From Saccoglossus kowalevskii (Eukaryota; Hemichordata; Enteropneusta; Harrimaniidae): DNA of 39,178 nt. Below, piece after piece: positions 1,659-36,576 of the stretch. A program made the position numbers and the translations under genes. Position 1 is the first letter of the stretch. Every line of letters starts with the position of its first letter. The notes beneath the pieces are model-generated. The model did not search any database and was not told the origin of the DNA. It was given only the letters and a program-made list of their open reading frames with translations. Location of the stretch: positions 181,079 to 220,256 of the forward strand of contig NW_003126389.1 of assembly GCF_000003605.2 (NCBI RefSeq), given 5' to 3'.

Positions 1659-1723
1659 GGTGGCGTGTTATGGTGGCGTGTTATGGTGGCGTGTTATGGT
1701 GACGTGTTATGGTGACGCTGTAC
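1659..1723. repeat. 13-bp minisatellite, five units
   Basis: The unit GGTGGCGTGTTAT occurs three times exactly (1659, 1672, 1685), then once with one change (1698, GGTGACGTGTTAT), then as a decayed fifth unit at 1711. It is a small perfect-phase tandem array in otherwise unique sequence. Confidence 0.9.
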
Positions 1724-2777: not shown

Positions 2778-2895
2778 TTGTTACACTGTTCAGGGGAGTC
2801 TCAACAACCATACCAAAGTACTGTTTTCTGAGAGTTCTCGGCCTTTGTTTTCACCGTGATGGTTGCCATGCGGTGAAAATGACCGGATGTCCGCC
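2778..2895. repeat. Dispersed repeat, copy 1
   Basis: This stretch matches 24697-24805 closely in the same orientation. Shared blocks include GTTACACTGTTCAGGGGAGT, GGCCTTTGTTTTCACCG and GCGGTGAAAATG. Flanks outside are not alike, so this is a fragment of an interspersed element of unknown class. Confidence 0.75.
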
Positions 2896-3036
2896 CCCCC
2901 CGAGAATACCCAAATGTGAACTGTTTTGCCACGAGGAAAGTTAGGCATCAGCAACATACTGTTAATAAAACATAAACCATCTATATACTAAATATTGATT
3001 GTTACCATAAAATGAGTCATTTATATTTTAACACAG

Positions 3037-3684
3037 GTAGCATTGGTAACTTGCCGACACAAGCATATAGGAAGCCACACCAAGGGCGATCACGACGCCA
3101 AGTAAACGGGGCATTTATTGGAGTTACGAGCAGCCACGAACTGGTTACTTATGACCCATCCAACAACGCTTTGTCAGAGCCATTACCGGGTACAGGTTTC
3201 ACAATTGATATAGCTCCATATATTGATGGGGCATTGCTTGGAATTACCGAATCTGGTGATCTGCAACACAAACCATCATTGGATTCACCCTGGTCAATCG
3301 TTTCACCTAATCGTTTCAACATTACATCAGTCACATTCACTAAAGATAATATAATATGGGCTGTAGAAGCTAACACACATCTGCTGATTTTCCGGGAATC
3401 ACTCAATCAAGACTGGGCTGACGTCATACCGCAGAGTGGACCAATACTTGGAATTGAAAGCTATGCTGGTGGAGTACTTCTTGGCATTGCTTGGCCTGAT
3501 GCAGATTCAGTGTTTTATGGTTCAGCTGCCGGTGACACGTTCTGGGTTCCAGCTGTAGATAATCTCGGGGATCAGAGATTATTCGATATCATGGTAGTAG
3601 CAGAAATTGAACAGATATATGTTCTAACAAATCCCAATGATTATTCTATAGTTAAGTGGTGCTCTTGGGATTTTAAGAATGCTG
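3037..3684 (+). CDS. Propeller cassette exon 1 of membrane propeller protein
   Basis: The acceptor is TTTTAACACAG before 3037 and the donor is GTAAGT at 3685. Both ends are phase 1 (split Gly codon), and 648 bases are 216 codons. The translation has repeats of about 40 residues: AFIGVTSSHELVTY, then LLGITESGDLQHKPSL...WSIV, then a more diverged WAVEANTHLL...W and LLGIAWPDADSV. The pattern of a G-V/I-T strand, a short turn, a second strand and a W before the next turn fits tachylectin-2/tectonin-type beta-propellers. The first blade is weak compared with the other cassettes and is replaced by a basic stretch with RSRR. This is the most diverged cassette and lacks the I-A-I-C-Y end of its sisters. 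It carries an N-glycosylation sequon (NIT). Known: such propellers bind glycans. Inferred: extracellular. An alternative start at 3012 would give no signal peptide, so I prefer an internal exon. Confidence 0.75.
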
Positions 3685-4956
3685 GTAAGTGGTGTTCTAA
3701 AATTCTTATTGAATCGTATTCTCGTTTTAATCGTGATAAATTTTAGCAATAATTAGGCAATAAATATTCAAACTTCAATAAAATATTTGACACATTTGTT
3801 ATAAGGAAACTTTGTATGCATGCATGCATATTACACGTTTTGCACGGGAAATACTGGCTATAAAACCATCATAATTATTAATTTATATTCATTTTTCTCA
3901 AATAATATTACATGTACTTTGTACTTAATCGCAATGTTTCCCATAGAATAATATAACTTGAATTGTATACAATTCTATAAAAAAATAGTTCAGCATAATT
4001 TAGCAAGACTAATACCAGCCAATATTTACTATATTTAATGTATTAATCTGAATCAATCTCATACAATGATATAAGATGAATTGACAAATACAAGCCAATC
4101 AAAACTATATTTACTGTATTAATCTGAATCTATCTATAATCCGTGTGATTGACGTATACAAAATGTGAGACATAGAAACTGTCTTAAAATGAAATGAATG
4201 CTAAAAGTTCTGAAAATTTCACCGTCTACAACATCAATATGGTTTTAGATGACGATATTGAGTACCAAATAGGCAGACCCATTACGCGGAATAGAGTTTT
4301 TACGGTCAGTTATTGAACCATTGAGAGATAGAATTTGTCTTCATATCGTATTTGCATTTATTTTTGTTAAGATTAAGACCCCATTGAATAATGTCTAAAA
4401 GTTGAGTGAATGTTATAGAGTTATTAGAGTACCACTGTCTAATTTTGGAGAGTTAACATTTAGAGATAAACATTTGGTTTTCAGTATTCAATACATCATA
4501 ACACTACTCTGTGCACATAACGATTAAGATAGACCGTAATATCCAAACTACCTGCATACTTACAAATGGAGTCTTTTCGCCCATACTTTTACCAGCGAAG
4601 TAAAAACAAATTTTGTGACCAAAATAACCGATGTTTATTTCAAATGTTATTGTTTCCATCGCAACTACAGAAAAAATATGCTGATATTATATACTTTTAT
4701 ACCACCTAATATTGAACATTTCACAAATACGCACTCACCTGTTTCAAGTCAGCTACTATATAAACCTTAAATGTATTGTGTAAATAACACTACCAGTACA
4801 AAAGTACTAAGAACGATTGTCGTTTGCAAAGAAGCATCGTAATAGCATATTAAATGTGTCATCCAAAAATGGAATTACTGACCCCAAAACAAAGTTCAGT
4901 AACATTTGTAAAATTGTTTTGTGTAGCGCATTATTAATTTCTGAATTACATTTTAG
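3685..4956 (+). other. Intron after propeller exon 1
   Basis: AT-rich, with a GTAAGT donor and an ATTACATTTTAG acceptor. A minus-strand open frame at 4807-5052 overlaps the next exon and is a shadow. No repeats or RNA genes seen, apart from two similar stretches with GTATTAATCTGAATC at about 4038 and 4109. Confidence 0.65.
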
Positions 4957-5574
4957 GTGATACTGGTGGTACCTCTGCAGTAGATGGCATGGAATTGTTG
5001 ATAATAAATACTGAGAATCAATTGTATCAAACGAATTTAGAAATGGACTCATTTAATGGACCATTAACACCCAATGTACCTTTGATTGATGTTGCAATGT
5101 CCCAAGATGGATGGTTTATTGGTGTGACGAATTCATACGAATTAGTACATATGCCATCGTTGGAAAATGGTGCCTGGTCAAACCCAATTCCTGGAAGTGC
5201 TAGTGTAATCAGTGCGTGTGTATATGGAACGACTACTATTTTTGGAATAACTGAAAATAAGGAGATGAAAATAAGAAATGACATCCAATCATCATGGTCG
5301 CTTGCAGCGGATGGGTATCGGGAACAGGTCATACAGATAACTACTTCCGATTCAATCTTGTACGGAATAACACCTAACAGTCTTTTGTATTTTGATCCAT
5401 CTGGGTCATGGGTAGATATGGAAATTGACTTTGGTGGCAATACTGTTACAGACCTTACATTTGTTGACAGGGAATATATTGCATCAACGTTTACAAATTC
5501 AGGTTTTATAGCTGTATGTTATGCAGTAAGCACTGGAGGAAATAGCGGAGGAAGTAGTAGCAGTTCAAGTTCAG
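4957..5574 (+). CDS. Propeller cassette exon 2
   Basis: The acceptor is TTACATTTTAG and the donor is CAG|GTATGT; both ends are phase 1 and the length is 206 codons. The module starts with a strand of the type ELLIINTENQLYQ, then NGPLTPNVPLIDV, WFIGVTNSYELVHM, WSNPIPGSASVISAC, IFGITENKEMK, SILYGITPNSLLYF, and ends with GFIAVCY. That makes four full blades of about 40 residues plus half-blades at each end that could close a five-bladed ring as in tachylectin-2. After the last strand comes a Gly/Ser linker (GGNSGGSSSSSSSG). It is clearly the sister of cassettes 3 and 4, with which it shares the PLTPNVPLIDV and NPIPGS motifs. A start at the internal Met (4989) is possible in the open frame but would cut the first strand. 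Confidence 0.82.
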
Positions 5575-7154
5575 GTATGTGTATTTGTTCGTTGACACCC
5601 ACGAGGAGCTTTATTTTTGCACATATGTTCAATGACATGATTTAATTATTGAAACCAAACGAAGTCTACCATGATGTATAACTATTGTTATTGTACACCC
5701 CAGGGATAACATTTTACCACAGTATCATATACAAGTTCAGAGTATTTCATCGGATTTATCGATAATAACTTATTTTATATAGCTTATATAGATTTAGATT
5801 TACCATACAAATCACAATATCCACATCTATATGTTTTAGATAATCAATGGTATACTTGCCTTTCTAACTTTTTCACCACCAGACTTTCTCGCCCAGATTT
5901 TGTTAATTTGTGATGCAAATAGAAAACTGGTGCTAAAAAAATTAAAAATGTGAACAGCATCTTGACTACTAACTAGTTTTGTTAGTAGTCAAAGTATGTC
6001 ATCAATTGTCTTGGAAATAGATATATGCATAAATAATGCGACAAAACGACCAGTTAGTACACATGTTTCAGCACCTTGCTTGCACATTTGGTATATGTCA
6101 AAATAATTAATATTAAATTTTTCGTAACATCTCATGGAATAATACATGTAAATGTGCGTAAAAACATGCAATGACAGTCAAGTTTAAAGGGGAAAATGCA
6201 AATAGCTTTAGAATAACCACGGTGAACCCCATCACCTATGTTTGCTTCATGCTTACTAATATGAGTTCGAATCCATAATATAAATCGTACAATTTAATCC
6301 TCTTTCTTCAATATTTGATTTGATTTTACACTTTTACATAAATTTTCTTTTCAAGTTGTGAATGTAAACAAGACTAGATGAAGATGGATTTCAGAATATT
6401 ACGACTTAATTTGCCATAGAGAGCATATGATAATAATTGCATCTTAGCTGGTTATAATATCAAATTATTTCTTTGCTCGATACATTATAATTAATCAGAT
6501 CATTTTTTTTTCACCGTTGGAGCAATTGTTTCTAGGGAGTGTATTTCAAACAATCAACTGGATATTTGTCATGTAGCATTTACGTCACATGTTTTAGCTA
6601 CCATTTTGAACTTTTGACCAAAATGAAAAAAAAAAAAAGATTGGGAATTTTCTTCTAAGGAGTGCTTAAGCCGATCATCTAGATATTTGGTATACAGCAT
6701 ATATGACATAAGTTTTGTTTACAAGATAAATGTCCTTATTTTGATCGACCACATGGTTTGGCCACCAACTTGAAATTACCTCAATTTAAGGCATTTCTGT
6801 CCCATGGATACTTTTGCCGATCAAAATGTTCTTTTCCATGTAGCTGAATGAGAGAATAATCTTCTGAAATAAATAACATTTATATCAATGGAAACACATT
6901 TAAGCATATGCAGCCTTCAAAGACCCGAAAAAGCTATTTATTTATTTATGTATTGGCTTGAGGTTAATAAGTAATGAACACTATTTTCCTCTTAGCATAA
7001 GTTTTAGAACATGATTGAAGGGATAGTGTGAGATCTCATGATTAAAAATCCATGATAAAAACGAGTGTTAAATTGACAACACAAGGATTATTTAAGAAAA
7101 CAAGGTTTGTAATTGTTGTTACCATAGTCATATTGAGTTTGCATCATGTTTTAG
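5575..7154 (+). other. Intron after propeller exon 2, with degenerate repeats
   Basis: Starts GTATGT. The part 6490-6860 holds imperfect repeats of about 140-180 bases marked by GATATTTG.(4-7 bases).TAGCAT and by CACATGGTTTGGCCACC; related units recur in the next intron. The stretch 6940-7060 aligns with 8676-8795 of the next intron. From 7052 the frame is open into exon 3 and may encode a signal peptide (see exon 3). Confidence 0.6.
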
Positions 7155-7769
7155 GTTCCACTGGTTCATCAGTAGCCGATGGCATCGACACATTAGTAAT
7201 ACGTACTGATAATCACTTATATAAGACAACATTGGAAATGGAATCATTTATAGGACCATTAACACCTAATGTTCCCTTGATTGATGTTGACATGTCACCG
7301 GATCAATGGCTCATTGGTGTAACAGTTGGATATGAATTAGTACATATGTTGTCATTGAAAAATGCTGTGTGGTCAAATCCAATTCCAGGAAGTGGTAGTG
7401 TGATCAGCGCATGTGTAGATGAGCAGGGATACATCTTTGGAATAACTGCAACTAAAGCGTTGAAAAGGAGAATTGATGTCCAATCAGCATGGTCGATTGT
7501 AGTCAATGGGTATGTGGAAGAGGTCATACAAATAACCACACATTCAATGCTGTACGGAATCACACGAAACAGCCTCCTGTATTTTGATCAATCTGGTTCT
7601 TGGATTGATACTGGAATTGATTTTGGTGGCTATGCTATTGCAGATCTTGCATTTGTCACTTCAAAACGTATTGCCCAAGTGGTAGAGAATATTGGACTCA
7701 TAGCTATATGTTACATTGGACAACAACAATCATTACAACCGAATGAAGAATCTAGTAGTACGAGTGTTG
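7155..7769 (+). CDS. Propeller cassette exon 3
   Basis: The acceptor is GCATCATGTTTTAG and the donor is GTTG|GTAAAT; phase 1 at both ends, 205 codons. The repeats read LVIRTDNHLYK, then PLTPNVPLIDVDMS, WLIGVTVGYELVHM, WSNPIPGSGSVISAC, IFGITATKALKRR, MLYGITRNSLLYF, then LIAICYIGQQ and a Gln/Ser linker. It is very close to exon 4 across the first 90 residues, a recent duplication. The reading frame is open upstream to a Met at 7052, giving a basic start followed by FVIVVTIVILSLHHVLG, which looks like a signal peptide. So this exon may be either internal or, from an alternative promoter, a first exon. The shared TTGCATCATGTTTTAG before exons 3 and 4 is both a fair acceptor and code for LHHVL. 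Confidence 0.82.
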
Positions 7770-9600
7770 GTAAATACACACGTTTGTTTTATTGCTTATT
7801 GTCTTTTACACATAGTTATAGTATGTATTTCAATGCACGACCCCTTCTTCCCATCCCCTCAGTAAAGCCGCGACCCCCACATAGATCAAGACATCCGACA
7901 CTTATAAACAAAGCTGGTGCACCTAACTCTCAACATTGTTAATGATCGGACTGGTTCGGCAGTCATTTTGGATTTAAGTTAAACTGAAAGTTTACATTAC
8001 GAACCATTTGAATCTTTACGTATTGTGATTTTTGAAGTAGTATTGTCGATATATGGCTACCCATGTTATGAATACAAACGTTAGTAGCGGTCATGTGACT
8101 TTTCTGTTTTTGTAGTTGCTAAAATCATCTCCACAACCATTGAACACATGAAATTTATTTTCTAGCATGTATGTATAATTCTCATTAATATTAGCAAAGA
8201 TCTTTGTGACTGATCACATGGTGTGGTTGCCATCTTTGGTTTTTTTACTGATGCTATATTGATCTGATTATTTTGAAATCTGCCATGTTGCATTTCTATG
8301 CTATGAATTCTTTGAGGCAGAAAATAATTAATTCGACTGACTCACATTATTTTGCGCCATCGGAGTAAATGTTTTTCGTAAGTGCTTTTTAACCAACAAA
8401 CCAACTGAATACTTATAATGTAGCATATATGATCGTACCTTTTTACAAATAAATTAAAGTAATGTTTATCAGATCGTGCTTTAGGTGCCAATTTGAATTT
8501 TCAAAATGATAAAAGTTTGGGGCGTTTATTTCTTATGAATGATTCAACCAGTCAACTTGCTATTTTTCATCTTCTTAGCACAATAAACATATACATCGGT
8601 GGGTAAATCAATGGGCATATTCCTTTTTTTATACTTGATTCCGATAAAGTTGCTCGAACGCTTTAATTATGATTATTATGCATTGGTATCATGTTAATAA
8701 GTGGGGAGCACTATTTTCCCATTAGTATAAGTTTAAGAAGCATGATTAAAAAAATAGTGTGTCATCCCTTGAATAACAATCCATCGTTAAAATGAAGAAT
8801 TACCAATCAAATCATTGCGCTACAGCTGCGATATACTAAAATATCCCCATAACAATGCCTTGACGAGATATAAATACTAAATTAATTTAACGAGTTTCCA
8901 CGGTTACAATTGAAAACAAACATGATTAATTAAGGAGCCCTTACCAATTTAAAATGAAGAACATTTTTGGAAACTGTAGTGCAGCGCGCCCTTTAGCAAG
9001 CAATAATAGTAATGTCATATGTTAAATGTATGGCTAATCAAAGATATTGTACGATATTCAGTTGACTTTTGAAATAATATTTTGATGATTTTACATGCCT
9101 AATGGTAATGACACAATATGAAAAATGTTCACCAAATACATCCACTATTATTGCATTTGTCGCATAAGATCAGAAAATATGTACAGAGAAGACTTTGCAA
9201 AATAATGCATTGGTTACACTCGTCCAGTCCCCTGCATGGTTTCACCTGTTGTTTCTTCAATATCACACAATACACCTTGTTACCCAAAATACTACGCAAT
9301 TATGGTTACGAATATTGGTTTAGCAACAAATACACAGCAAATAATAGCTAAACCACACGTAGTATGTGGTTGTGCCTTTGCAATTGATGGAATTTCCGGG
9401 TGAAAAAGGGTACAAACATATACCAATCAAATGTGAAGTAGTATATTACTCTCTTCAATTCTATACGTCTACAAACTCCCGTTCTTGCGTTTATTACTCA
9501 TTCCACGTTGAATACTGTTGTATAATAACCTCTATATCCAAAAGAAAAAAGTGTGTATTTATGAAAATATTATTAATATCGAATTTGCATCATGTTTTAG
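7770..9600 (+). other. Intron after propeller exon 3, with duplicated intron sequence
   Basis: Starts GTAAAT. Degenerate repeat units related to those of the previous intron lie at about 8100-8590 (for example TGATCACATGGTGTGGTTGCC). The block 8676-8795 matches 6940-7060, showing that the tandem duplication that made exons 3 and 4 included intron sequence. About 700 bases between 8795 and 9500 have no counterpart before exon 3. A short open frame at 9118-9351 has no recognised content. Confidence 0.6.
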
Positions 9601-10197
9601 GTTTTGCTGGTTTGTCGGTAGAAGATGGCATTGATACCTTAGTGATAGGTAGTGATAATCAATTATATCAGACAACATTGAAAATGAAATCATTTATAGG
9701 ACCATTAACACCTAATGTGCCATTGATTGATGTTGACATGTCACCGAATGGATGGCTCATTGGTGTTACAGTTGGATATGAATTAGTACATATGTTGTCA
9801 TTGGAAAATGCTGTGTGGTCAAATCCAATTCCAGGAAGTGCTAATGTAATTAGCGCATGTGTAGTTGAACGGGAACTCATTTTTGGAGTAACTGCAAATA
9901 ATGAGTTGAGAATGCGAACTGATATTCAATCAGCATGGTCGATTGTGGCTAATGGGTATGCGCAGCAGGTTATAAAAATAACTGCCCACATAATGCTTTA
10001 CGGACTTACACCAAACAGTCTCCTGTATTTTGACCAGTCTGCTGCTTCCTGGATTGATACTGGAATTGATTTTGGGGACAGTGTTTTGGTAGATATTGCA
10101 TTTATTGATTCAGAAGTTATTGCCCCATTGGTAGCGAATACAGAAATGATTGCTATATGTTACATTGGACAACAAACATCATCACAATCTAATACTG
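9601..10197 (+). CDS. Propeller cassette exon 4
   Basis: The acceptor is GCATCATGTTTTAG and the donor is ACTG|GTAAAT; phase 1 at both ends, 199 codons. The module reads LVIGSDNQLYQ, PLTPNVPLIDVDMS, WLIGVTVGYELVHM, WSNPIPGSANVISAC, IFGVTANNELRMR, MLYGLTPNSLLYF, MIAICYIGQQ, then a short linker rich in Ser, Thr and Gln. It is almost the same as exon 3 in blades 1 and 2 and less so in blades 3 to 5, as if the outer blades diverge faster or a conversion event kept the first half alike. The frame is open upstream, with a Met at 9561 giving MKILLISNLHHVLG, a short signal-peptide-like run. The status as internal exon or alternative start cannot be settled from sequence. Confidence 0.82.
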
Positions 10198-12288
10198 GTA
10201 AATATAAACAATTGTTTTTTGAGTATTGTATTTTACCCATAGTACATTTTTTATCACTTCACAGAATCACTACTGTATCACGATAGCTCAGATTAAAACC
10301 TTTTATGCACTATCATGTTATAACACAAATTTGGGAATTACATTAAGAATACAAACTGCGCTATTACAAACCAAAGTTTCGTCATCCTAATACTTCATAA
10401 AGTAGTCATGTGTTACGTAATACATTACAGACCCAGTGATAGCAACATTAATACTTGGGTTTAAAAATGGTATTAAAAGAAAGCTAAATATGTCATTTTT
10501 AAGTATTCACGAATGTATGAACTTCTAGTTTATGGAATCATTTTATCATGATATTACAAATATTTTGTTCTATTGATGGAAATGTCGTTGTCAAAAAGTT
10601 AAAGTACGTTACCATACTGGTAAACGGTCTGCTGATGCATTGTGTTATGTTCCATAAATATGATTAATGTTCCAATTCATAGTGTGGTTACCCAGCACTG
10701 TATGTCATATGAAAATGGCTAGTATTTTGCTGATTTATACGTCTTCTTTATGAGGGAGTAGTAGTAGTAAATGCAAAATCTGTCAAGCTTCTATGAAACC
10801 GTGATATGTCGTACATGTATTCGGAAGACGCATTTGATAAACACGTCATTTTACAGACACAGAGACTCAATTTTTGTAACCATCACGTAGGTGTATTTCC
10901 AATCCTATATAAGGTGTTCTAGAAGACTTGGAACGGCTTTGAGTTTTCCATAAATACGTTTTTGAAACTCTTGTACATTTTTTGTATTTTAACACACTGT
11001 TTGTTTTCGGATTTTCTAATCAACTTATATTGTTTTGGCGAAATATATGCATGTTTTTCTATTGCGCCATTTCGATAATAAAAGTGCTAGACCCTTCATA
11101 CACTTTACTCGAGTACATAAAAGAGGTGTAATTGTCAATTAGAATGTAACATAAACAAAGGTTTTTATAATCATACAGTTTACAGTTAAAATTCAAAGTT
11201 TTTCCAAGTTAAGTGTTTTAGAATTTCTCATATAGGATCGGGCTACACCTTTAATAATTGTTTACTTTACTGACACTGAGAAATTTACTGATCCTTGTAC
11301 TTTTTGTCAGTAAACACTGATTTAATAATATACAACACAATTGCAAAGTAAGTTGAAATTGTCGAAAAACTGGTAAGCATGTTTGTTTCTGAACAAGATT
11401 TTGCAATCATGACATCGAACATATTGCCCCAGTGTGTGGAACCGTTTTGTTCGTTTACTAAATTCGAAGGGATAGTCACGTCATACTGCTATTATATTTA
11501 TTATGAGAGTTTATTTCATTCTGAGCAGACATCTCCAGTTAACAATACATTCTGATATTCTGTTCTTGTAACGTGTTTTTATTGGGTAAGATAATTTCAT
11601 GACAACAAATATGCACCCAATATTTTCACTGGGGCTATCTTCATAAAACATTACACTAATCATCAGCAGACCCCTTAGTCATACAATTAATTTGATTTAA
11701 TTTCTATCAATCGGAAAATATGTTTGCATCATCATAAACAATGTACTCCAATAATAATTACTTAACGTATAGTTAATGAAATAATAACTTTATTTACTAT
11801 GATATTTTATATGAAGGTACCATTGAAGGGACAATAAAACATTGTTATTTATCCGACAATTTACAATGTTTTTTGGGGGGAGTCAAATTCCTTCTGCTAA
11901 ATTGTTTTTTTCAGCAGCGGAAGTATTTCTGCCAGTATGCCAGTTTGTATTCCGACTGTAGAATGCAACATAATTCACTTCTAGCAAACTGCCTGGGACA
12001 CTATTTACACCACTTGATTGGGTTTTAGTAATTTGTTTAGTGGTCTTTATATACCCTTACAGCATTGGTTGATTATGGGCTGCAACGTAAAACCGATCAT
12101 TCAGTGAATGGGGAAAGCTACGTTAAAAAAGTCCTTAATATTATGCTCATCAAGAGCAATTTTATTTATCTTTTCTTTAATTTGTTTTCAATTAAGTAAT
12201 ACCTAATCATACATTAAAGTCACAACTTATAAAGAAACAGTATTGTAATTCTCAATTGAATATACTCTATTTTCTATTTCCTTTTTAG
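10198..12288 (+). other. Long intron after propeller exon 4
   Basis: About 2.1 kb of AT-rich sequence with a GTAAAT donor and a pyrimidine-rich TTTCTATTTCCTTTTTAG acceptor. I see no further cassette, even a broken one, on either strand. A minus-strand open frame at 11285-11479 shows no recognisable protein. Confidence 0.6.
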
Positions 12289-13050
12289 TAGAAACAGCAC
12301 TTCTCGTTGGAGATGACAACTATTTGTACACACGTGATGAAAGTGGCTCTGTTTCCCTTGTTCCATATACTTATGGTATTATCGATATTGTTGTCATGAG
12401 TGACGGTTCTTTACTCGCCGTGAATATAAAAAACGAAATGGTGCTAAAGTATAAAATAAATGATCAAGGATGGACTGAAATAGTACCAAACTCTTGCTGT
12501 GTGATTAGTGTAGAAATCAAGAACAGCCTCATAATTGGGGTCGGAATCGATAACCATCTATATACAAAAAATACATTGAATGATGTTTGGAATGGCCCGG
12601 TTGCAGACAGTGGATTTGTACAAAAGGTGGTCACATACAAGGATGATATATATGATACAATAATGGCAGTGGATACAAATGGTGTAATATTAATAACATC
12701 AAAGGACAGTGTACCTTTTTGGCGAGATGCAATAATCAATGGCAATGTGAAAGATTTTACGGTGGTACCATCAGGTTTTATTGATCCAATAATGCATGAT
12801 GACCCTTTCTTTCAAGCAATATGCTATGGTGAATTGCCAGATAGTTTTACTGCTATGGGTAGTTCTGGAGGATCTGGCAGCTCTGGTGAGTCGAGCAACG
12901 CTGGTTCACCAGGAAGCACAAGTGGATCTATTGATTCTGGCTCTGATGGAAGTTCTGGGAGGAATGTTGACTCTGGTACAGCTGGAGGTTCAGGTGGATC
13001 TGTTGAGTCTAGCTTGGCTGGAAACTCTGACAGATTAGACGCTGCAACAG
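12289..13050 (+). CDS. Propeller cassette exon 5 with Gly/Ser linker
   Basis: Acceptor TATTTCCTTTTTAG, donor ACAG|GTAGAC, phase 1 at both ends, 254 codons, the longest cassette. It opens with ALLVGDDNYLYTRD, then SLLAVNIKNEMVLKY, the CC strand NSCCVISVEI, LIIGVGIDNHLYTK, a less regular blade ending FWRDAI, and FFQAICYGE. About 65 residues of Gly/Ser/Asp-rich low-complexity linker follow (GSSGGSGSSGES and similar). The L-x-x-G-x-D-N-x-L-Y-T signature is the clearest propeller mark in the gene and links it to a widespread invertebrate repeat type with N-S-C-C-V-I strands. The linker is the likely flexible hinge before the last propeller. Other frames are also open over the linker because of its repeated codons; those are shadows. 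Confidence 0.85.
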
Positions 13051-13225
13051 GTAGACAGTGATATATTTTTATATATATATAGATATTGTAACTATATGCA
13101 TGCTTTCGTGGGTAGTTGCAATTATTCATATGTGAGTACATTTAGTGAAAATTGCATTCTACAAAAATATACAAATTATTACTCCCTAACAAAGAATTCT
13201 CATAAATTCTATTATCGATTTCTAG

Positions 13226-13894
13226 AAGATCCTCACACTTCTGTTGCTATGCCTGGTGCATCATATTCGGCAAGTCACTATATAACAGGAGAAATGGATC
13301 AATGCAACGTGATTGCTGTTGGGAAGGATGGTTATCTTTATACTGGAATCCCAATGGGTGACCATGCATATCAATACCATGGCCCAATTCATGGCTCATG
13401 TTGTGTGATAGACATTGCTAGTCTACCTGACAAAACACTTGTAGGTGTTCAAGAGGACAATAGGTTATATGTTAAAACAAATTTAGTGGACGGCAGTTGG
13501 ATTCAAAGTAATACAGATAGCTGTTGCATTGTAAGTGTGGACGTGTTACCTGATGGTGAAATAATAGCAGCCAGTATCGAAGATGTGTTGCTCATTAGAT
13601 CAAGTATAAATGCTAAATGGGATCTAACAATTCATATTGGCATGCACATTGCAAAACTTACCTTAATTCCAAACAGTTTTGATATAATTGGGATTAGTGA
13701 AGATAGTACACTCATTATTCGTACTGACGGTGTGTGGAAGACACTCGACAACGACCTGTTCGTTCAACCTATCACTGACTTGACTGTAGACGAGGAAGGC
13801 AATTATGGTGCCTTGGTTCCCGGAATGTCAGAATTATCAAATGGGGACCAGATTCACATTGTCAGCATTGCATATGTCGATCTCCTTCTCCAAG
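13226..13894 (+). CDS. Propeller cassette exon 6
   Basis: Acceptor ATCGATTTCTAG, donor CCAAG|GTATTT, phase 1 at both ends, 223 codons. The intron before it is only 175 bases and its frame happens to be open, so a longer translation from 13096 is an artefact of retention. Repeats: VIAVGKDGYLYTG, GSCCVIDIASLPDKTLVGVQEDNRLYVK, DSCCIVSVDVLPDGEIIAA (two CC strands), then IGISEDSTLIIRTDGVW, and an end strand IHIVSIAYV in place of I-A-I-C-Y. It shares the CCVI type of blade with exon 5, so exons 5 and 6 form a second subfamily apart from exons 2 to 4. It is the membrane-proximal propeller. Confidence 0.84.
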
Positions 13895-14712
13895 GTATTT
13901 TCTAAACTTACTTGTGCAATATTTAATTTTATATTGTCATTGACAACACTGATTTGTTTTGGCAGAATGAATTTAATAATGAATTTAGTAATGTTTTGAT
14001 TAAATCATGGATTACTATTCGTCATCAAATTCATTGAATATTGCATTCACCAGGAAATGGCGTTGTTCTAAATAGTGACCTCTTCATTCAGATAAAAAAT
14101 GTTCACATACAAATATATTGGATATTAAACACACTAGAACCATAATGCTCATTGGACTGTTGTATTATGCTCTCTCACTGTTACATTCTCAAACTTTCTT
14201 TTATCTTAAATTAAAATTAAAACAGCAATGATCTCAAAGCTTTCGACTGTCACATTGCATTACAAATATCAAACTTAGCGCACAATTGGATATTACAACT
14301 ACAACAACAACAACAACAACAACAACATGTAATAAAATACCATGTTACCTCTGCTAGGTTTATTAATGAAATTATCAGCTTGTTTCAGTGTCCATGACAG
14401 CATAAATTTGAAAGCTTTTGCGATGCGACATAACAATATTGATTTACAAATCTTTGCTAGAAATGTATGGTCGAGTATTTCGAGAGAAGTTACTGTAGTT
14501 TTAACTTATGCCTAACGTCCCAGTGAAGCAGACGACGAGGGTCAATCAGACTGATTTGAGTGCGACAAGTGCAATAAATGTTCAGATGTGAAACAGGGAC
14601 TAGATAATTAAGGATAAATTTACTGGGTCACGTTCATTGCATTGAACTAGCAAATTGAGAATACTTGTATTATTTCATTTTAATTCAACTATTATATTTT
14701 TATTCATTTTAG
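13895..14712 (+). other. Intron after propeller exon 6
   Basis: AT-rich, donor GTATTT and acceptor TTTATTCATTTTAG. It carries a CAA microsatellite at 14301-14326 and nothing else recognised. Confidence 0.65.
14301..14326. repeat. CAA trinucleotide microsatellite
   Basis: About eight to nine perfect ACA units inside an intron. Length is likely variable between individuals. Confidence 0.9.
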
Positions 14713-14739
14713 ATTATATGGGGTCTCCTCAGATGATCG
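14713..14739 (+). CDS. Mini exon, 27 bases, membrane-proximal stalk
   Basis: Acceptor CATTTTAG and donor TCG|GTAAGT (strong), both phase 1. It adds nine residues, DYMGSPQMI, between the last propeller and the next stalk exon. The frame and phase match on both sides and the donor is a consensus match, which is why I accept an exon this small. Like the next exon it begins with D-Y. It could be skipped without breaking the frame, so alternative splicing is possible. Confidence 0.6.
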
Positions 14740-15008
14740 GTAAGTTTAAGATCAAAATAAACCCTCTAAAACTAGCCATAACAAATAATGATTCTGTATT
14801 ACTGTTTGAAATACAAAATCAATAATAGAGGTTTTTAAGTATTGTTTTCGCTTCGCTGTTATTTATTATTTTGTTTGCCGTTTAATGCCCAGAAAATAAT
14901 CATTGCTGCACATGTACATTATATATAAAAATAGCACATCAATGTTTTGCCAAATGTCACTTAAATGTACATTTACTGGTTGTAGTTCAAATGTATGTTT
15001 GTTTACAG

Positions 15009-15083
15009 ATTACCAGGACATTTCTACTAGTGGTATTTTCAATGACGAATATGGTTCAATTCCTGCTGAAAACAGTGGATTAG
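15009..15083 (+). CDS. Small stalk exon, 75 bases
   Basis: Acceptor TTTGTTTACAG, donor TTAG|GTAAGA, phase 1 on both sides, 25 codons. It encodes DYQDISTSGIFNDEYG then SIPAENSGL, a polar acidic stretch suited to a stalk or juxtamembrane segment. Two Tyr residues in acidic context (DYQD, DEYGS) could be sulfation sites; that is inference. Skippable without frame change. Confidence 0.7.
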   Translation: MTRTFLLVVFSMTNMVQFLLKTVD

Positions 15084-15195
15084 GTAAGATACGTTCAATA
15101 CAAAACATCCCTTATTCACGAATATGAATATATAAATAAAACAGTTTTACTTGGATTCAAGTAAATTTCACCAGAATTTGTATCCCAAATTCTAG

Positions 15196-15305
15196 GTACT
15201 GCGACCAAGATTGTATTGCCGCTGATTATAATTGCTCTACTGATTGCGGGATGTATTGGTGTATATTACTACAGAACAAAACAATTGTGGCTTGGTACGC
15301 CATGA
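15196..15305 (+). CDS. Last exon: transmembrane helix and cytoplasmic tail
   Basis: Acceptor CCCAAATTCTAG, phase 1. The translation starts GTATK, then a hydrophobic run IVLPLIIIALLIAGCIGVYY of about 20 residues, then YRTKQLWLGTP and a TGA stop at 15303-15305. The basic residues after the helix fit the positive-inside rule for a type I protein, with the propellers outside. The tail is only about 11 residues, with no known signalling motif, so the protein probably acts as a surface lectin or needs a partner to signal. An alternative is a donor at 15295 (CTTG|GTACGC), which is weak. If used, the next acceptor at about 15406 (CTTATTTTCAG) would give a different hydrophobic end. Confidence 0.75.
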
Positions 15306-15690
15306 CACCACACTCCATTCTCCTTCCCAGAGCTCCTTGCGGTTAGATAGGTTAGATAAATGTATGTGTCACTTGTCAAGTCACTCTGCCAAAAATCTTA
15401 TTTTCAGGTCATTTATATCGCTTTATTTTCTTGTCAACCCTGGCAATCTACGTTATAATAATGGGTTTTTCTACCTCAGCATGAAAAGTTCGAATTGAAT
15501 TATTTACGGAACCAAAAATCTGATGAAATGTTGAAGTAGCCGAGTAGTGAGCTGTCTTCTTGGACATATGTAAATGGATTCCGATGGTCTGTTTGCATTT
15601 TTGTACTTGCATTCATTGTGCTTTAAAATAACTGTGTATTCTGCGGTTTGCATTATTTTCTGTGGTATTTAGAAGCAAACGGTCATTTGT
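15306..15690 (+). other. Presumed 3' untranslated region
   Basis: This lies between the TGA stop and the LINE insertion. There is no clear AATAAA; the poly(A) site is not evident. A TTATTTTCAG at about 15406 followed by a short open hydrophobic frame could be an alternative last exon, weakly supported. Confidence 0.45.
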
Positions 15691-15741
15691 CGCCATGTCT
15701 CCCCATTGTTTGTTGCGTATTACTACTAGTGTCATACCCCG

Positions 15742-15795
15742 ATATTACCTCGTCTTCTACTCTTTGTGGGTAACATTAAAACCAACCCAGGTCCT
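15742..15795 (+). pseudogene. 2A-like peptide relic at LINE N-terminus
   Basis: The frame reads ILPRLLLFVGNIKTNPGP. The known 2A consensus ends D-(V/I)-E-x-N-P-G-P, and the ribosome skips the Gly-Pro bond there. Here the NPGP core and the Leu-rich lead are intact, while the D and E have become N and K. An in-frame TAG a few codons upstream and a shift relative to the ATG at 15695 show that it is no longer in a working frame. 2A-like motifs are known in APE-type LINEs of several invertebrates. Confidence 0.7.
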
Positions 15796-15804
15796 GACAG
15801 TGAT

Positions 15805-16340
15805 ATGAAATGAAAACGGAACTTCTTGGTCAATTAAAACTCACTGGTAATAGACTGATTAGTGAACTACACGATGTTAAAATCAGACAAGTTACAATAA
15901 ACATGTTACAGTTTTAGAGATCAGTTTGACGACTTTCGCATTTCACTTGCTAATGTTCAAGACGAAGTAAACAAAATCAAAGACAAGATCAGGTAAATCG
16001 ATTATATTTGGAAGCAATTGATCAGAAACTTGATGTAATTATCACAAGAATAGATAATGTTGAGAAAGATGTTGACGATCTGGAAGGTCGCTCAAGACGG
16101 AATAATGTCCGATTTTATGGCATTCAATCGGAAATTAACGAAACAGCTGACGAATGTAAAGAAAAGGTAGCATCATTGTTAAATAGTCATATTCATGGTA
16201 AAACTTGGTCAAAACGTGATATTGAAATTGCACATCGTACAGGTAACGCGGATGTGGGCCACCAACCAAATATTGTTAAATGCCAATACGGAGTGGATCA
16301 AATTAGTGTGCTTTCTGGGAGATCCGAGTTAACTATCTAA
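15805..16340 (+). pseudogene. LINE ORF1-like coiled-coil region
   Basis: The region carries a heptad-like run (IDQKLDVIITRIDNVEKD...) followed by LEGRSRRNNVRFYGI and later EIAHRTG. This coiled coil plus RSRRNN..F.GI layout is typical of the nucleic-acid-binding ORF1 protein of invertebrate LINEs. Upstream code is interrupted by stops at about 15807 and 15916. The open part at 16008-16340 is a fragment, not a working gene. Confidence 0.75.
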
Positions 16341-16572
16341 CTAAATGTCAACATAAAACACTATCCGATTTAAAGAAACAAGGGAAACGCGGTTATTTTA
16401 AAAAGGGAAAACTGTTCATTATAGAGAATTCTAGGCAAAGGAGTCATAGTAATGTTACTCCAATTGTAAATCGTCAGCATTATACTACCAATTATCGTCC
16501 AATGACAAGATCTCAAGCCTGTGGCAGTGGTCATATGAGTAAAGAATAACAAACTGGCCATGGTCCAAAACC

Positions 16573-17320
16573 TTTAAATTTCCTCGCGTGGAATGTTAGA
16601 GGTTTAAAATACGAATTACCAATAGCTGACTTTATGAACTATTTGATGAAACATGATTTCATTGTTTTGTCTGAGAGTAATAAGCAATACGATAACGTTT
16701 TTTCCTGATTTTGAAGTATTCAGTACATATCGAATTAGAAAGTCGCCTACTGGTCGTTTTTCTGGAGGAGTTTGTGTACTAGTACGTAGTGTTTACAAAC
16801 AATTTATCAAACATATTGTTTGTCCCCTGCATGATTGTATTTCTGCAATTGAAAGGCGACCTGTTTAATATTGACAATGACTTTAATACAAACAATGGTA
16901 TGAAAATCAACGCATAAATATTATAGCCACTTTGCTCGATGTTTTTGTAATCGTTGCTGGTGGGTGACATGAACGCACGTACAGTTGAAGAACTTGATTA
17001 CATAATTGGCGATGATATTAGCTATGCTATAAGTGATAAAAAATGTTTATGACGTAGATTTCTTTAATATTAATAGAGTTTTAAAAAACACGACTACATT
17101 TGGTGGTTCCTTATTGACAATATGTAAAACCTTTAGTTTACATATGTTAATGATAAGTCAGGTGATGATTTAAATTGTGGTAACTTTACATGCATTACTA
17201 GTACAGGCGCAAGTGTTGTCGATTATGTATTGGTGTCATCTGGTGTTTTTCATAATATTTTAAATTTCTTGATCCCAATCCGCTTAGAATCTGACCATTT
17301 ACCTTTAAAGATTGTCATGA
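16573..17320 (+). pseudogene. APE-type endonuclease relic of LINE
   Basis: Signs are LNFLAWNVRGL at the start (the Asn of WN is a metal-site residue in the family), a loop IVLSES, then GDMNARTVEELDYI at about 16966, and VVDYVLVSS with ESDHLPL at about 17215-17310 (the Asp-His pair is catalytic). All these are in different frames or parted by stops (for example the TGA after NVFS), so the enzyme cannot be made. Confidence 0.8.
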
Positions 17321-17979
17321 ATATTTATCCACATTTCGATTTGTGTTACCATGACAATTTAAATGTTTCTTATTCAAAATATGTGTGGCACCCTGATAAA
17401 GCCAACCAAGTTGGTAGTGATTTGTGTTCGTTATTTAGTTTTGATAACTCCACTGAGGATCCAGAATCTTCTTTTAAGGATTTTATCTTGCAATTTGGCG
17501 AATTATGTCGCAGTGCTCCTACCAAATGTAACATTCATAAAAAAGAGGTCATCCGTTCTCACAATATTCATAGACAGCCTTTTTGGTTTGATGATGACTG
17601 TGAACAATTAAAGTATTAAAAATCCAGTTTGCTGAGACAATTTCAAAAGTATGAGAATCAAAGCCCTTTGATTAAATTTAGTGACGCTAAGAAATGTTTT
17701 AAAGCAATGTGTCGTCATAAAAAAGAAAATTTCTTGTAAATAAAAAAGCCAATTTGATTTCTTTAGCTAATCGTAAAAGATTTTGGTCAGCACTCAGAAA
17801 CCATATATTTACGCCTACTCCTGGAGGCGCTCAAATTTCCTCTGTTCAATAGTATGATTATTTTCAGGATTTCTTTTCACAAAAGGACAGTTCAGAGGGA
17901 TTTATCCTCAGAGATAAAATGGAGGATTTGGCCTCTTTAAATGACACTAATATTGGCTTGATCTATGACCTTTAAAATG

Positions 17980-19137
17980 GACCAATTTCTAAAGATGAAA
18001 TATACCAAAGCATAAATTCATTAAAACCAGGCAAATCATCTTGATGACATTATTGGCGAATATTTTAAATCAACGCGTGATCAAATAATTCCCTATTCAA
18101 ATATTCTTTTTAATAGATTGTTTGACAGTGGGATATTTCCAACACTTTGGTCTAAGGCTATTATAATACAATTGTTTAAGAAGGGTTCCACAAACCTTCC
18201 TGGGAATTATAGGATGATTACTTTGCTAAGTATTTTCAGTCATTGATTCAGAAATATTATAGTATGAAAAAGGGTAAATTTTACTGTTCTTTTATTGATT
18301 TCGCCAAATCATTTGACACTGTAGAACGTCAAAGGCATTGGTATGTCTTGTTAAAAGGGGGTGTCCATGGCAAAATGTTCAAAATACTAAATAGCCTATA
18401 TAGTGATGTTAAATCGTCTGTGAAATCATATGTTGGCAACACAGATTATTTTACCTGTCCAAAAGACGTCCGTCAGGGATTCATGCTGAGCCCTTTTCTA
18501 TTTCTTTCTTTATAAATGAACTACCGCGTAAATTACATAATACAGGTCAAAGAGGTATTCAACTTGCACCTGATCTGACTAAACTGTTATGTTTATTATT
18601 TGCCTATGATGTTGTTCCTTTTTCAAAATAGTGTTATATGTTACAATGATTGTTAAATTGTTTATGTTTTTTGTAAACAATGGAAAATGTCTGTTAATAT
18701 GCAGAAAACTAAAATTATTGTCTTTAAGTGTGGTGGGCGTGTTGCCAAAATTCAAAAATGGTCATTTAATGGGGACAAGGTTGTTTCTTATTATAAATAT
18801 TTGGGCATTTTATTTTCCTGTTGTCTAAAGTGGTCGTACCACTAAAGTTCTTGCTAAGCAAGGTAGAAAGTCTCTTTTGAGTGTTTCAACTAAAATTGAT
18901 AATATTGGTCAACTTCCCATTAACATATTTAACAAAATGTTTGATTCAATGCTCGTCCCAATTTTAACATACGACTCTGAAATATGGGGATACCAACGTT
19001 ATGAATATTTAAAACACGTTCAACTATTTGCATATAAAATGTATCTGGGCGTAACCAAAAATGCACCAAATGTCACTGTTTTTGGGGGAATGTGGGCGTT
19101 ACCCAATTTAGTTGTTAATTGCAAAGAAATGTATTAA
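17980..19137 (+). pseudogene. Reverse transcriptase relic of LINE
   Basis: Recognised blocks: INSLKPGKSS, then YSNILFNRLFDSGIFPTLWS, then FIDFAKSFDTVER (a catalytic Asp region), then DVRQGFMLSPFLF, then LFAYDVV at about 18599-18616. The family motif there is (F/Y)ADD; here the first Asp is Tyr, so even the open stretches are catalytically dead. The C-terminal part has NMQKTK, YYKYLGI and PILTYDSEIWG. Stops and frame changes separate the parts. Confidence 0.85.
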
Positions 19138-19548
19138 ATATTTGGCCAAAGTGATTAATATGCCAAGTCATCGTTTCCCAAACATACCTGGGGTAACGAG
19201 GTTAAGAATTGTTATACTTATGTAATTATGTGCATGGTGCTTGGGAAACCCAACAAGTCTGTAACATAGACGATTTTGTTAAGTTATTCACTTCACGTTT
19301 TAAGGAAGTATTGTTTTCTGAATGCTATTACGAAATCTCATCCCTTGATAAATTGGTTATTTATCGGAGTTTCAAAACCACTTGTAAATACTCATTCCCC
19401 CAGAGTAATGTTATCACGTTTACGCTGCTCGTGTAACCATTTACGGATTGAAACTAACAGAAAAAAATTATATGGAAAGAAATGAACGGCTTTGTATTTT
19501 ATTTATTTATTTATTTGGGTCACTGGCCTTATAGTACAAATAAGAACC

Positions 19549-19549
<1 letters not shown>

Positions 19550-19589
<40 letters not shown>

Positions 19590-19590
19590 G
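19550..19590. repeat. AT dinucleotide microsatellite
   Basis: About seventeen AT units straight after the LINE tail, which suggests growth from the element's 3' end. Confidence 0.9.
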
Positions 19591-20914
19591 GAAAACACTA
19601 TGAAAAGAAGGAAGCTGCAAATAAAAAAGCAAAATGCAGTAATTTCACCAATACGCCTCATTTATTTACATTAATCTTCATAGATTATGCTATTAATTTG
19701 AAATTCGGCAAACCTGCAGTCTAGACTGAATTTTTGTAAAGACCGATAGTGTCAAGTAACACTAATTGGGTTATCAGTTTAAATAATGAATGCAATACTG
19801 TGATAATATTCTACTGTGAATTATGTTGGGAACCGGATTGCTATGATCTATTATGTTTCTATCCTAAAACTTACGAACGAACAATCATACAATACAAAAA
19901 TATATAGTTATGCGGAATTAAGTAAAACTAACGTCATTGTACATCGGCCATGGGGAAACACGAACTTTGAGAAAACGTCCAACAAAAGTTAAGCTACATA
20001 AGTGTGTCATTCTAGGTTGAAGATTGTCTCATTTATTTTTACCTCACATTTACGCCACATTAAGATGCAAAACGTGTTTCCGACCATCAATGTTATTGTT
20101 TAAGACCATTACATCAATTATTATAGTTTATGCCTTGTGTGCAGCTTACTGTGACGAGATATGTTTTGCGATAAAACAAAATACCAACAGGTATATAATT
20201 AAAACCAATGCTCAGGTTACATAAATTAACAAATGTATAGTTAATGTTAGTAGTATAGGTTTCACAACACAATATTTATCAGAGCACATGATCACGTGCG
20301 CATTACACAAATGTAATTTTGAAAACAACCTTTTGTAAGTTCAGTGTTGTGAGATGACATTCTGCTCAAATTGGTTGCTGATGGCGTTGTGATATATCTA
20401 AATACAAGATCCTAGTTTAAACGGTTGAGGAAGCTCATCCAGTTATCTTGAATTTTACGAAAAGTTTGCTCGCCTCCTTTGAAATTTAATAAAATCCTTG
20501 AAGCAAATTTTATTTTGGTCTGGTCTAGTTTCATCATCTTAGAATAACTTATTTATAGCAGTGTACTTTGTAATATTCTTAATAGGTGTATCTATTTAAA
20601 CAAAAAATAATACTTAATATACCACTGAGCAATAATCCCACTTAACTGATATTTCCTGGAGCCAGTGTGCACAGGCCTGTGATGTTTAGAGAACATGATC
20701 TCAGTAGTATTACAAGTAATTTTACATATTATTAACATCTATTTATTTGTATTCATTATGTTACAACGCAATTATTATATTTATGTATTCAATGTGATCT
20801 AATTCCCTAATGTCACTGACTATAGGATCGAATAAAAGAACTGATCATATTAGACATATACCTGTGTGAACACTGATTGATTACGTTTCAGGGAGATAAG
20901 GACCATTATTTTAA
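19591..20914. other. Intergenic sequence
   Basis: AT-rich. No exon, RNA gene or recognised repeat. Short open frames (for example 20024-20224) have no domain signs. Confidence 0.5.
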
Positions 20915-22497: not shown

Positions 22498-24137
22498 CAT
22501 TCATTCAAGACATTCATTTTAACCGACCACCAGTCGTTTTTTTTCTCATGGACATCTACGCTACATGTTCGTAATAATTATTTTTTTCTTATGTATTTGT
22601 TCTAGTTCCGATGTAGAACTAGTATTTCTCTGCAACCTCTCTATTGTATTAGTGTACGAGAGTACATTTTGCATAACTTTACACCATATTTTTGATGGAC
22701 TACGATGTGCGCTTCCTACTTTAACAGCAAGCATCCCAAGGTTTCGAAAATGGAAGTCTACACAAATTCAAATTGGAGAAACATAGAAAAAGATTCCACA
22801 CCTTTTTGCCCGTGCGTTTTAAAAAAGGAAATAGCTTAATTTACGAAAATTAATTTCTAGTAAGAAATATATTTTCCTTTCCATCAAATGCATTCTGAAA
22901 TTCATTCCCCTTTGCATGTATGTTTATAGAATATTTTTATTACCTCATATAAATAGAATATGCAGTAAGTTGATATATCCAGTTACAACTTTAAAATATG
23001 TCAATGTGATCATAGTTTGAAAGTGTAAACATTTCATCTAGACATGGTCAAAATATCATTCATTTTTTTTTTATAGATGTGCATGTGCGTGTCGAGTAAG
23101 TACTACTTGGTGTTAAGAGGGCTAATTTCTTAACGTCTGTGCGCGGTTGAACGCTCTGTTTGGTAGATTTCGTTTATGCTTTTGTTTCAGAGATTTTGAG
23201 TGATTTTGCTGCTGAAATGTTTTAACTATGTGACTTTTCTGCTCGGTACATTACGTTATCGTTCGGCGACTCAATTGCATGTTTACGTGTTTACGCTGAC
23301 TCATTTACCTAGTGAGAATATTTGCTGTATTTATCTCTGATTTACTGATTTATGTATAGCTTTGTTATTCCATTACTTCTGAAATAGTGTATTTGTGATG
23401 ATCTATAGGACTGTATTATACCGATATCTAGTGGTTTCTGATTTATAGAAATATTTAATTATTTGCTTTCGCAGTATTGGAGTACAGTCATAATAAAGCA
23501 CGCCGTTAGCACATGTTGATGTTCCACTTGAGGTGTTGGAAAATTGTTGTGGCGAGACATGGTTCTTTAGGCTATTATACTTACCGTATTTACAGTATTA
23601 TATATTATTGGATTGTATTTTATTATTTGACTTGTACATGTATATGCTTATATATGGATATTTATGTTTGTATTTTCAGAATAATCGACAATTGTATTTA
23701 GAGTTTTCTTTATGTATATTTTCAGTTAATCGTATCGTACCGCATGTAACGCTTGGTTATGTGATAGTTGATGCTCATTAAATACAACATATCCCTCAAG
23801 TCAAGCCTCCATGCTGTCATTTAATTTTATTGCATGAAAGGGACCCACAACTTGGTGTAAAATAATTTAGCAGGAAACGCCCAAATACCTGATTGCACGG
23901 ACGGCAAAGTACATTATAGATGTCCCCGAACTGTTAACTGATCTCAAGGAGCAGGTAGGAAACATGAGAAATTGATCAAACATACATTATAAACGCAATT
24001 ACAAACTTTGCGAATTGTTCATGGCATTAACTGGATTAATTTGGTAAAGTGCGCAGCTAAATCTACAAATTAACGGGACTGCCATTTTCTTTCATTTTTC
24101 TGTTTTTTACAAGGCATAACCACATCGTGCATTATTG

Positions 24138-24168
24138 ATGACAACGTCTGTTGCCAACCCAATCACAG
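24138..24168 (+). pseudogene. Broken signal-peptide exon (duplicate of 36507-36576)
   Basis: The frame TTSVANPIT matches the end of the intact exon TTSVAKPIT. About 110 bases present upstream in the other copy, with the ATG and most of the hydrophobic core, are absent here. The donor GT of the other copy is GG at the same place (ACAG|GG). Both changes would stop it from working as a first coding exon. An ATG has appeared by a point change at 24138, but it gives no signal peptide. Confidence 0.7.
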
Positions 24169-24696
24169 GGTTGTTACCCAGTCATTATGTTTCGCTATCA
24201 TGCTCTGTCACTGTTCAACAGTTTTCTTTCAATAACATTGCCTATCTCGCCTGTGAGTGATGCATGAATGCACTCATTCTTAAAGTATAGATGCAGGTTC
24301 GTGGGCACTTTTTTTGCTTTTTATTATTCAAACAGTCTATAAACTGTTAAAGAATCGCAAATTCCACTAAAACATACTCAAAAGACGACTTAAAAATATA
24401 GAAAACGGGTATAAACATTCTCTCTTTTGAATGCTTAGCAAGATTTAGCAAAGCTGTACATAAATACGAAACATGGTGAAAAAAGAAATGACGGGATCTC
24501 CATATTATGCGCTATATTTAACTTTTTACAAAACGATAATAGGTTTAAATTTAGGACTGTTATATACTTCTTCTGTTCCATCGTTAATCATGTCAATGCC
24601 ATCCAGCAGAATCATTATTGGATGAAAGTACATAGTTACTAATAATTTACCATGTAATTTCGTCAACACATGTGTGACAATAACGATGGCTAATCT

Positions 24697-34084: not shown

Positions 34085-34097
34085 GGGGGGGGGGGGG
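34085..34097. repeat. Poly-G run
   Basis: About thirteen G in a row; error-prone in sequencing and able to form a quadruplex only as a single tract. Confidence 0.8.
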
Positions 34098-36506: not shown

Positions 36507-36576
36507 ATGAAGCTGCTGGTAGCTGTGTTCTGCTTCCAGTTACTGATAACAACGTCTGTCGCCAAACCAATCACAG
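36507..36576 (+). CDS. Signal-peptide first coding exon of a second gene
   Basis: ATG at 36507 starts MKLLVAVFCFQLLITTSVA, then KPIT and a donor ACAG|GTTTGT after the first base of the next codon (phase 1). The n-region Lys, the hydrophobic core and the small residues before Lys make a standard secretory signal, probably cut after SVA. A TTCTGTATAG acceptor at 36486 suggests a 5' UTR intron. The phase equals that of all propeller cassettes, so the gene may be another member of that family continuing past the right edge; that is inference, as no propeller exon follows in the remaining sequence. The duplicate at 24138 is broken. Confidence 0.65.

What the first reader, a model, noticed from the sequence alone, without database searches (positions are those of the whole stretch)
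3037..15305. A membrane protein built from six single-exon beta-propeller cassettes
Seen: six large exons, all multiples of three, all phase 1 on both sides, each encoding repeats of about 40 residues with the same start strand (L..G.DN.LY) and, in four of six, the same I-A-(I/V)-C-Y end strand, followed by low-complexity linkers, then two mini exons and a transmembrane exon. Known: tachylectin-2 and tectonin proteins are propeller lectins, usually soluble and often single-domain. A type I surface protein with six such rings, each shuffled as one exon, would be a multivalent glycan receptor of a kind I do not recognise. Immune or cell-recognition roles are inference.
Basis: partly seen in the sequence, partly recalled or inferred. 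Interest (0 to 1): 0.82.

Follow-up and report, generated by a model that had tools for sequence, protein, structure and literature searches.

The report
Membrane receptor of stacked propeller exons
An invertebrate gene appears to encode a cell-surface protein with six ring-shaped domains in a row, each made by one exon; it belongs to a tandem gene family in which one type of ring exon occurs in different numbers in different genes, and its natural binding partner is unknown.

Summary
Six exons (3037-13894), all phase 1-1 and multiples of three, each encode one homologous domain of ~40-residue repeats; two mini exons and a transmembrane exon follow. AlphaFold models of two of the six cassettes are propellers. 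The own genome adds what the window could not show. The gene is the fourth of at least five array members on one contig. Where readable, paralogues keep exon order, mini exons and transmembrane exon. A signal-peptide exon with a phase-1 donor precedes two paralogues and a third copy lies in the window; for the window gene its place falls in an assembly gap. A tree of 27 cassettes resolves four types: E1, E2-E4, E5, E6. A paralogue on contig C805 has the plain order 1-2-3-4; type 2 multiplied by tandem exon duplication. So exons were duplicated in place, not shuffled in. A LINE insertion cut the cytoplasmic tail in genes B, C and D. No window cassette matches Pfam Tectonin alone, but a relative that passes it aligns with E5. 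Ligand, expression and species are unknown; a recognition-receptor role is inference.

The parts
3037..3684 (+). E1, cassette type 1: propeller exon, phase 1-1; begins with a short pro-region ending R-S-R-R|Q (furin-like motif, recalled)
   Evidence: type-1 exon of C805 is 56% and 54% identical to the D and C copies; RSRRQ in gene C, RLRRQ in C805
4957..5574 (+). E2, cassette type 2, with Ser/Gly-rich end
   Evidence: AlphaFold2 pLDDT 74.6, pTM 0.76; fold searches
7155..7769 (+). E3, cassette type 2
9601..10197 (+). E4, cassette type 2 (72% aa identical to E3; similarity extends into introns)
12289..13050 (+). E5, cassette type 3, followed in the same exon by a Ser/Gly-rich linker of about 65 residues
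   Evidence: aligns with the C2388 tectonin-like ORF at 35% identity over 117 residues
13226..13894 (+). E6, cassette type 4, membrane-proximal, lowest dN/dS of the six
   Evidence: AlphaFold2 pLDDT 79.6, pTM 0.79; dN/dS 0.30-0.40 against genes A and B
14713..14739 (+). mini exon m1 (27 nt), stalk
   Evidence: found again in genes A and B
15009..15083 (+). mini exon m2 (75 nt), stalk
   Evidence: found again in genes A, B, C and E
15196..15305 (+). transmembrane exon and stop; last codons (from about 15286) are derived from the LINE insertion
15286..19591 (+). decayed LINE inserted in the cytoplasmic-tail codons; probable 8-bp target-site duplication AAAACAAT at 15278-15285 and AAAACACT at 19592-19599 (borders read by eye)
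   Evidence: gene A aligns on both sides of the same site; B and C share the insertion; gene E lacks it
19591..19632 (+). displaced DNA homologous to the tail codons of gene A
36507..36576 (+). signal-peptide exon (MKLLVAVFCFQLLITTSVAKPIT, donor G|GTTTGT in phase 1), taken to belong to the next gene of the array
   Evidence: copies with the same donor at C1914:102782 and 139317
24132..24230 (+). decayed copy of the signal-peptide exon region (N-terminal codons missing)

Best explanation
The gene most likely encodes a type I cell-surface protein. A signal-peptide exon is expected just outside the window in an assembly gap. It is followed by a short propeptide ending in a furin-like site, then six propellers of the tectonin superfamily in a string, a stalk of two mini exons, one transmembrane helix and a 13-residue tail cut short by a LINE. 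Shown: exons, phases, homology, conservation in paralogues, tandem duplication, the LINE. Predicted: ring fold and membrane topology. Inferred: the string works as a multivalent binder of external ligands, most likely microbial or cellular glycans. Type 2 cassettes act as the variable, copy-number-adjustable binding units and the type 4 cassette as a conserved base. With so short a tail it would need a partner to signal, or act in capture, adhesion or shedding. Diversity arises by unequal exchange between phase-1 single-exon cassettes and between whole genes of the array.
Confidence: 0.6

Rival explanations
1. The protein is a surface adhesion or cell-to-cell (for example gamete or self) recognition molecule that binds protein partners, not glycans, as LRP, ROS1 and Sevenless propellers do.
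Against: The sequence ties found lead to tectonin, not YWTD or NHL families (a type-3 consensus touched NHL only at E 0.54); no EGF or other partner modules matched in the six cassettes.
Confidence: 0.25
2. Cassettes E2-E4 are alternative exons, so each mature protein carries four propellers (types 1-2-3-4) with one type-2 version chosen, as in Dscam-like variable exons.
For: All are phase 1-1, so any can be skipped in frame; the C805 gene has one type-2 cassette; among the genes read, type 2 is the only type seen more than once per gene.
Against: E2-E4 can equally be joined; docking or selector sequences were not sought; no expression data.
Confidence: 0.2
3. The window holds more than one gene: E3 starts a separate transcript, because its frame runs upstream into a signal-peptide-like stretch (MIKTSVKLTTQGLFKKTRFVIVVTIVILSLHHVLG).
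For: Open frame and hydrophobic stretch before E3.
Against: In four other type-2 exons of the array (frames opening at C1914:86413, 109391, 111799 and 149493) the frame opens only about 10-20 codons before the acceptor; C2808 copies and E4 are open further, but E4 has no comparable leader. The acceptor TTTTAG|G is shared by E2-E4. No stop or TM exon was recognised after E2 before E3, and the conserved signal-peptide exon is a different one.
Confidence: 0.06
4. The copy is a decaying family member: the LINE in its last exon makes it non-functional.
For: LINE insertion; neighbours with broken frames.
Against: All six cassettes are open with intact splice sites and dN/dS is below 1 for E6, E1, E2, E3 and E4 (E5 is near 1); genes B and C share the insertion, and the cassettes of theirs that could be read are open.
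Confidence: 0.12

Closest known systems
Tectonin domain proteins (Pfam PF19193; Laccaria tectonin 2, fish-egg lectin/fishelectin, human hTectonin of PMC2707011)
   Same: Blades of about 40 residues with a V-I-x-[IV]-x-x-x-x-D-G start and a conserved Trp; nearest named family in sequence through C2388 and among the structure matches
   Different: Window cassettes do not match the Pfam model one by one; the known ones, as I recall them, are soluble or cytosolic with one or two rings, not single-exon cassettes strung on a membrane anchor
Tachylectin-2 (horseshoe crab; coral homologues, PMC2880987)
   Same: Five-bladed propeller with repeats given as 40 residues in the coral paper; sugar recognition; positive selection reported in Oculina (abstract and passages seen)
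   Different: No Pfam tachylectin match; GW motif of loop DA' (PMC8023676, passages seen) absent by inspection; eukaryotic tachylectins-2 are described there as secreted proteins of the propeller alone
LDL-receptor-type YWTD multi-propeller receptors (LRP4, LRP6, megalin, ROS1, Sevenless)
   Same: Membrane proteins with several propellers in a row (recalled); similar or higher fold scores
   Different: Six-bladed YWTD rings with EGF modules (recalled); no such Pfam match in the six cassettes
Nascent propellers by blade amplification (PMC9218822, start of abstract seen in a search listing only)
   Same: Repeat amplification as a source of new propeller proteins
   Different: Here whole rings, one exon each, are amplified together with introns, not single blades

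Membership tests
Tectonin (PF19193) | profile match above the gathering cut-off of 30 bits | tested here: not met
   0 of 6 window cassettes listed at E<=10 and 0 of 9 paralogous cassettes; six-cassette and 27-cassette consensus 20.8 and 19.0 bits; four type consensuses not listed; only the C2388 relative passes (33.2 bits)
Tectonin (PF19193) | sequence homology to an accepted member | tested here: met
   C2388 ORF (passes PF19193) aligns to E5 at 35% identity over 117 residues, E 5e-19 for the single comparison; the same ORF is hit in the whole genome by E6 (E 8.1e-10) and E2 (E 5.1e-5)
Tectonin (PF19193) | beta-propeller fold | tested here: met
   predicted models of E2 and E6 and PDB matches; prediction only, 2 of 6 cassettes
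Tectonin (PF19193) | carbohydrate or LPS binding | not testable with these tools
   needs protein
Tachylectin-2 (PF14517) | profile match | tested here: not met
   not listed for any of 6 cassettes at E<=10; the own-genome PF14517 search did not complete
Tachylectin-2 (PF14517) | GW motif in the loop between blades | tested here: not met
   absent from the D-A' loops of E1-E6 by inspection of the alignment; motif taken from PMC8023676
Tachylectin-2 (PF14517) | five-bladed ring | tested here: inconclusive
   strand order of the E6 model fits five blades closed by the last strand with the first three, but coordinates were not inspected
YWTD (LDL receptor) propellers | YWTD repeats with flanking EGF modules | tested here: not met
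   no such Pfam match for the six cassettes at E<=10; introns and mini exons were not scanned for EGF
Type I membrane protein | cleavable signal peptide plus one TM helix | tested here: inconclusive
   TM exon conserved in paralogues; signal-peptide exon seen in array copies but that of the window gene would lie in a gap; no topology predictor was run

The most novel reading that the evidence does not exclude
An invertebrate repertoire of cell-surface recognition receptors not met in the papers listed by my searches. The number and identity of binding rings per receptor change by tandem amplification and exchange of a single-exon propeller cassette (type 2: one in C805, three in the window gene, at least four complete near-identical ones on C2808). 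The membrane-proximal ring and stalk stay constant, and the tail has been remodelled by a transposon.
Probability: 0.33. Interest if true: 0.8.

Novelty: new variant of a known kind. Interest (0 to 1): 0.6.

Why it matters
Propeller lectins are known to me mainly as small soluble proteins. A membrane-anchored family with four to six or more rings, each one exon, shows a route by which valence can be changed by simple in-frame exon duplication, with near-identical copies still present on C2808. It makes a testable case of cassette copy-number variation in an invertebrate receptor family, with a constrained base ring and, by weak evidence, faster-evolving outer rings.

Tried and rejected
Tachylectin-2 membership: rejected (no Pfam match, no GW motif). 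A second start at E3 or a separate gene: judged unlikely (see rivals). Signal-peptide exon inside window 1-3036: scanned, no good candidate; then found as a conserved exon elsewhere in the array. More exons downstream of the TM exon (suspected because a phase-1 donor-like GTACGC lies before the stop): searches showed the site to be a LINE junction; the similarity of C805 and C126 beyond their tails appears in several frames at once and looks like DNA conservation; further exons are not strictly excluded. PDB sequence searches with the whole protein and with the profile found nothing convincing. NCBIfam and PHROGs: only weak single-member matches, best E 0.037 and 0.028. Phage collection, E2 only: no match. 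Rfam at gathering scores: nothing in the window. Tandem Repeats Finder on L023: no rows, its longest period being 500. The tree printed showed support labels displaced by re-rooting (0.015 beside type 2); one search read the unrooted file and gives 1.0 for that split. Species: the mitochondrial cox1 stretch on C4830 reads with TGA=W, holds no AGR codon, and fits ATA=I and AAA=K better than the echinoderm or usual invertebrate code; this rests on recalled conserved cox1 residues and the taxon was not pinned. Papers: the capped listings of searches showed no paper on a membrane-anchored multi-ring tectonin family; abstracts and outlines seen for PMC2880987 and PMC2707011, passages for PMC2880987 and PMC8023676, all others in listings only. 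Variation by strand or loop: type-2 loops vary more than strands (0.49 versus 0.35), type 4 shows no such contrast (0.22 versus 0.23); not taken further.
Full report
What is there. The window lies at G000:C1914:181079-220256 in a 572-Mb assembly of 4830 contigs. Nine exons on the plus strand between 3037 and 15305 have AG/GT borders (the last ends in a stop); the first eight are multiples of three with phase 1 on both sides. Together they encode 1372 residues without a start exon. The six large exons are mutually homologous in all 15 pairs (best E per pair about 1e-90 to 1e-5), and a profile of them finds no seventh in the window. Each tested cassette contains repeats of about 40 residues; a blade profile that leaves out the tested cassette beats 200 shuffles in 4 of 4 cassettes tested.

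Family. E2 finds 40 places and E6 46 places in the genome at E<=0.001; these include own exons, other cassette types and pieces of broken copies, so they are not gene counts. The stalk/TM query gives 13 matches at E<=10, nine covering the TM and four the m2 exon only; three of the nine are weak alone (E 0.1 to 2.7) but lie next to family cassettes. On C1914 there are at least five genes in tandem: A (TM at 93.4 kb), B (117.2 kb), C (160.9 kb), D (the window gene, 196.3 kb) and E (283.9 kb), with assembly gaps between and inside them. On C805 one gene has the plain series type 1, type 2, type 3, type 4, TM, its cassettes 46-66% identical to the matching window exons. In an unrooted tree of 27 cassettes each type is one split: support 1.0 for type 1, 1.0 for type 2, 0.946 for type 3 and 1.0 for type 4. 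Type 2 holds E2-E4 and all other multiplied copies seen. Local duplication is plain: E2-E4 similarity runs into the introns, and contig C2808 carries four complete type-2 units of about 2.5 kb, 94-99% identical, plus a partial fifth at its end. That small contig could hide assembly errors.

Splice sites in paralogues. For 22 paralogous cassette exons read (one of them split by a frame change), a phase-1 AG lies near the expected start in 22, but AG is common and this alone is weak. A phase-1 donor with at least 5 of 9 consensus matches at a plausible place was found in 18, one of them (C126) only just. The four C2808 copies have only a weak GAAG|GTGTAG at the place matching a C805 donor.

Signal peptide. 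The exon MKLLVAVFCFQLLITTSVAKPIT stands at C1914:102782, 139317 and 217585 with small substitutions and the same phase-1 donor ACAG|GTTTGT in all three. The first two are upstream of genes B and C; the third is inside this window at 36507-36576, ahead of gene E. A decayed copy is at window 24132. For the window gene the matching place falls in the gap at 171162-181078, directly before the window. Joining of this exon to E1 is inferred from position and phase. E1 starts with a short stretch ending RSRR|Q, also in gene C; the C805 copy has RLRR|Q. I read this as a furin-type site (motif recalled).

Tail. Gene A continues from YYYRRK into a basic tail. Genes B, C and D break off at the same codons, where a decayed LINE of about 4.3 kb in the window copy is inserted with a probable 8-bp target duplication; DNA matching the gene A tail lies at window 19591-19632. 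Gene E has an uninterrupted tail. So the window protein ends in about six residues of transposon origin.

Selection. Against nearest array paralogues, dN/dS is 0.30-0.40 for E6, 0.48-0.79 for E1-E4 and 0.73-1.04 for E5. Bootstrap on one gene pair (D and B) gives E5 above E6 in 96.5% and E3 above E6 in 98% of 200 resamples, with overlapping intervals. I read this as a constrained base ring and freer outer rings, weakly.

Relation to known families. No window cassette matches Pfam Tectonin, nor do nine paralogous cassettes. The six- and 27-cassette consensuses reach it at E 3e-4 and 1.1e-3, below the cut-off; four type consensuses do not, and one of three shuffled controls reached E 0.007 with an unrelated model, while the reversed control gave E 0.44. 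The link that counts is an intermediate: a regular ORF of about five repeats on C2388 passes Tectonin (33.2 bits), aligns to E5 at 35% identity and is hit in the genome by E6 at E 8e-10 and E2 at E 5e-5. I therefore place the family in the tectonin superfamily without filing it as a Pfam Tectonin member. Tachylectin-2 membership is not supported.

How it may work. A string of rings on a short-tailed membrane anchor suits multivalent capture of repeated ligands such as microbial glycans; tectonin domains of a human protein are reported to bind LPS (PMC2707011, abstract seen). That is inference, as are adhesion and self-recognition alternatives. Nothing here shows a ligand, a tissue or a signal.

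Noticed in passing
window 21203-24562 and 33397-37022: Two copies of a block of more than 3 kb, 81-96% identical in the reported ungapped pieces, 12.2-12.6 kb apart; the second carries an intact signal-peptide exon, the first a decayed one.
   Followed up: partly
window 15954-19137: Decayed reverse-transcriptase-like and endonuclease-like open frames (names recalled) within the LINE insertion of the tail exon; the insertion is shared with genes B and C.
   Followed up: yes
window 37877-39012: Open frames resembling a LINE ORF1 with a zinc-knuckle-like stretch (recalled resemblance; frames).
   Followed up: no
window 302-568 and 29800-30130: Dispersed repeat, 78-84% identical segments.
   Followed up: no
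L023 and L024 (C2808): Tandem array of near-identical type-2 cassette units of 2.5 kb filling an 11.9-kb contig and running off its end.
   Followed up: partly
L035:1435-2022 minus strand (C2388): Regular tectonin-like ORF of about five repeats, with a near copy of its second half nearby at 2960-3292.
   Followed up: partly
L029 (C4830, 17,037 bp): Mitochondrial contig with cox1 on the opposite strand to frames that look like nad1 and cox2 (the latter two recognised from memory); its code fits TGA=W, ATA=I, AAA=K, which I find unusual.
   Followed up: partly
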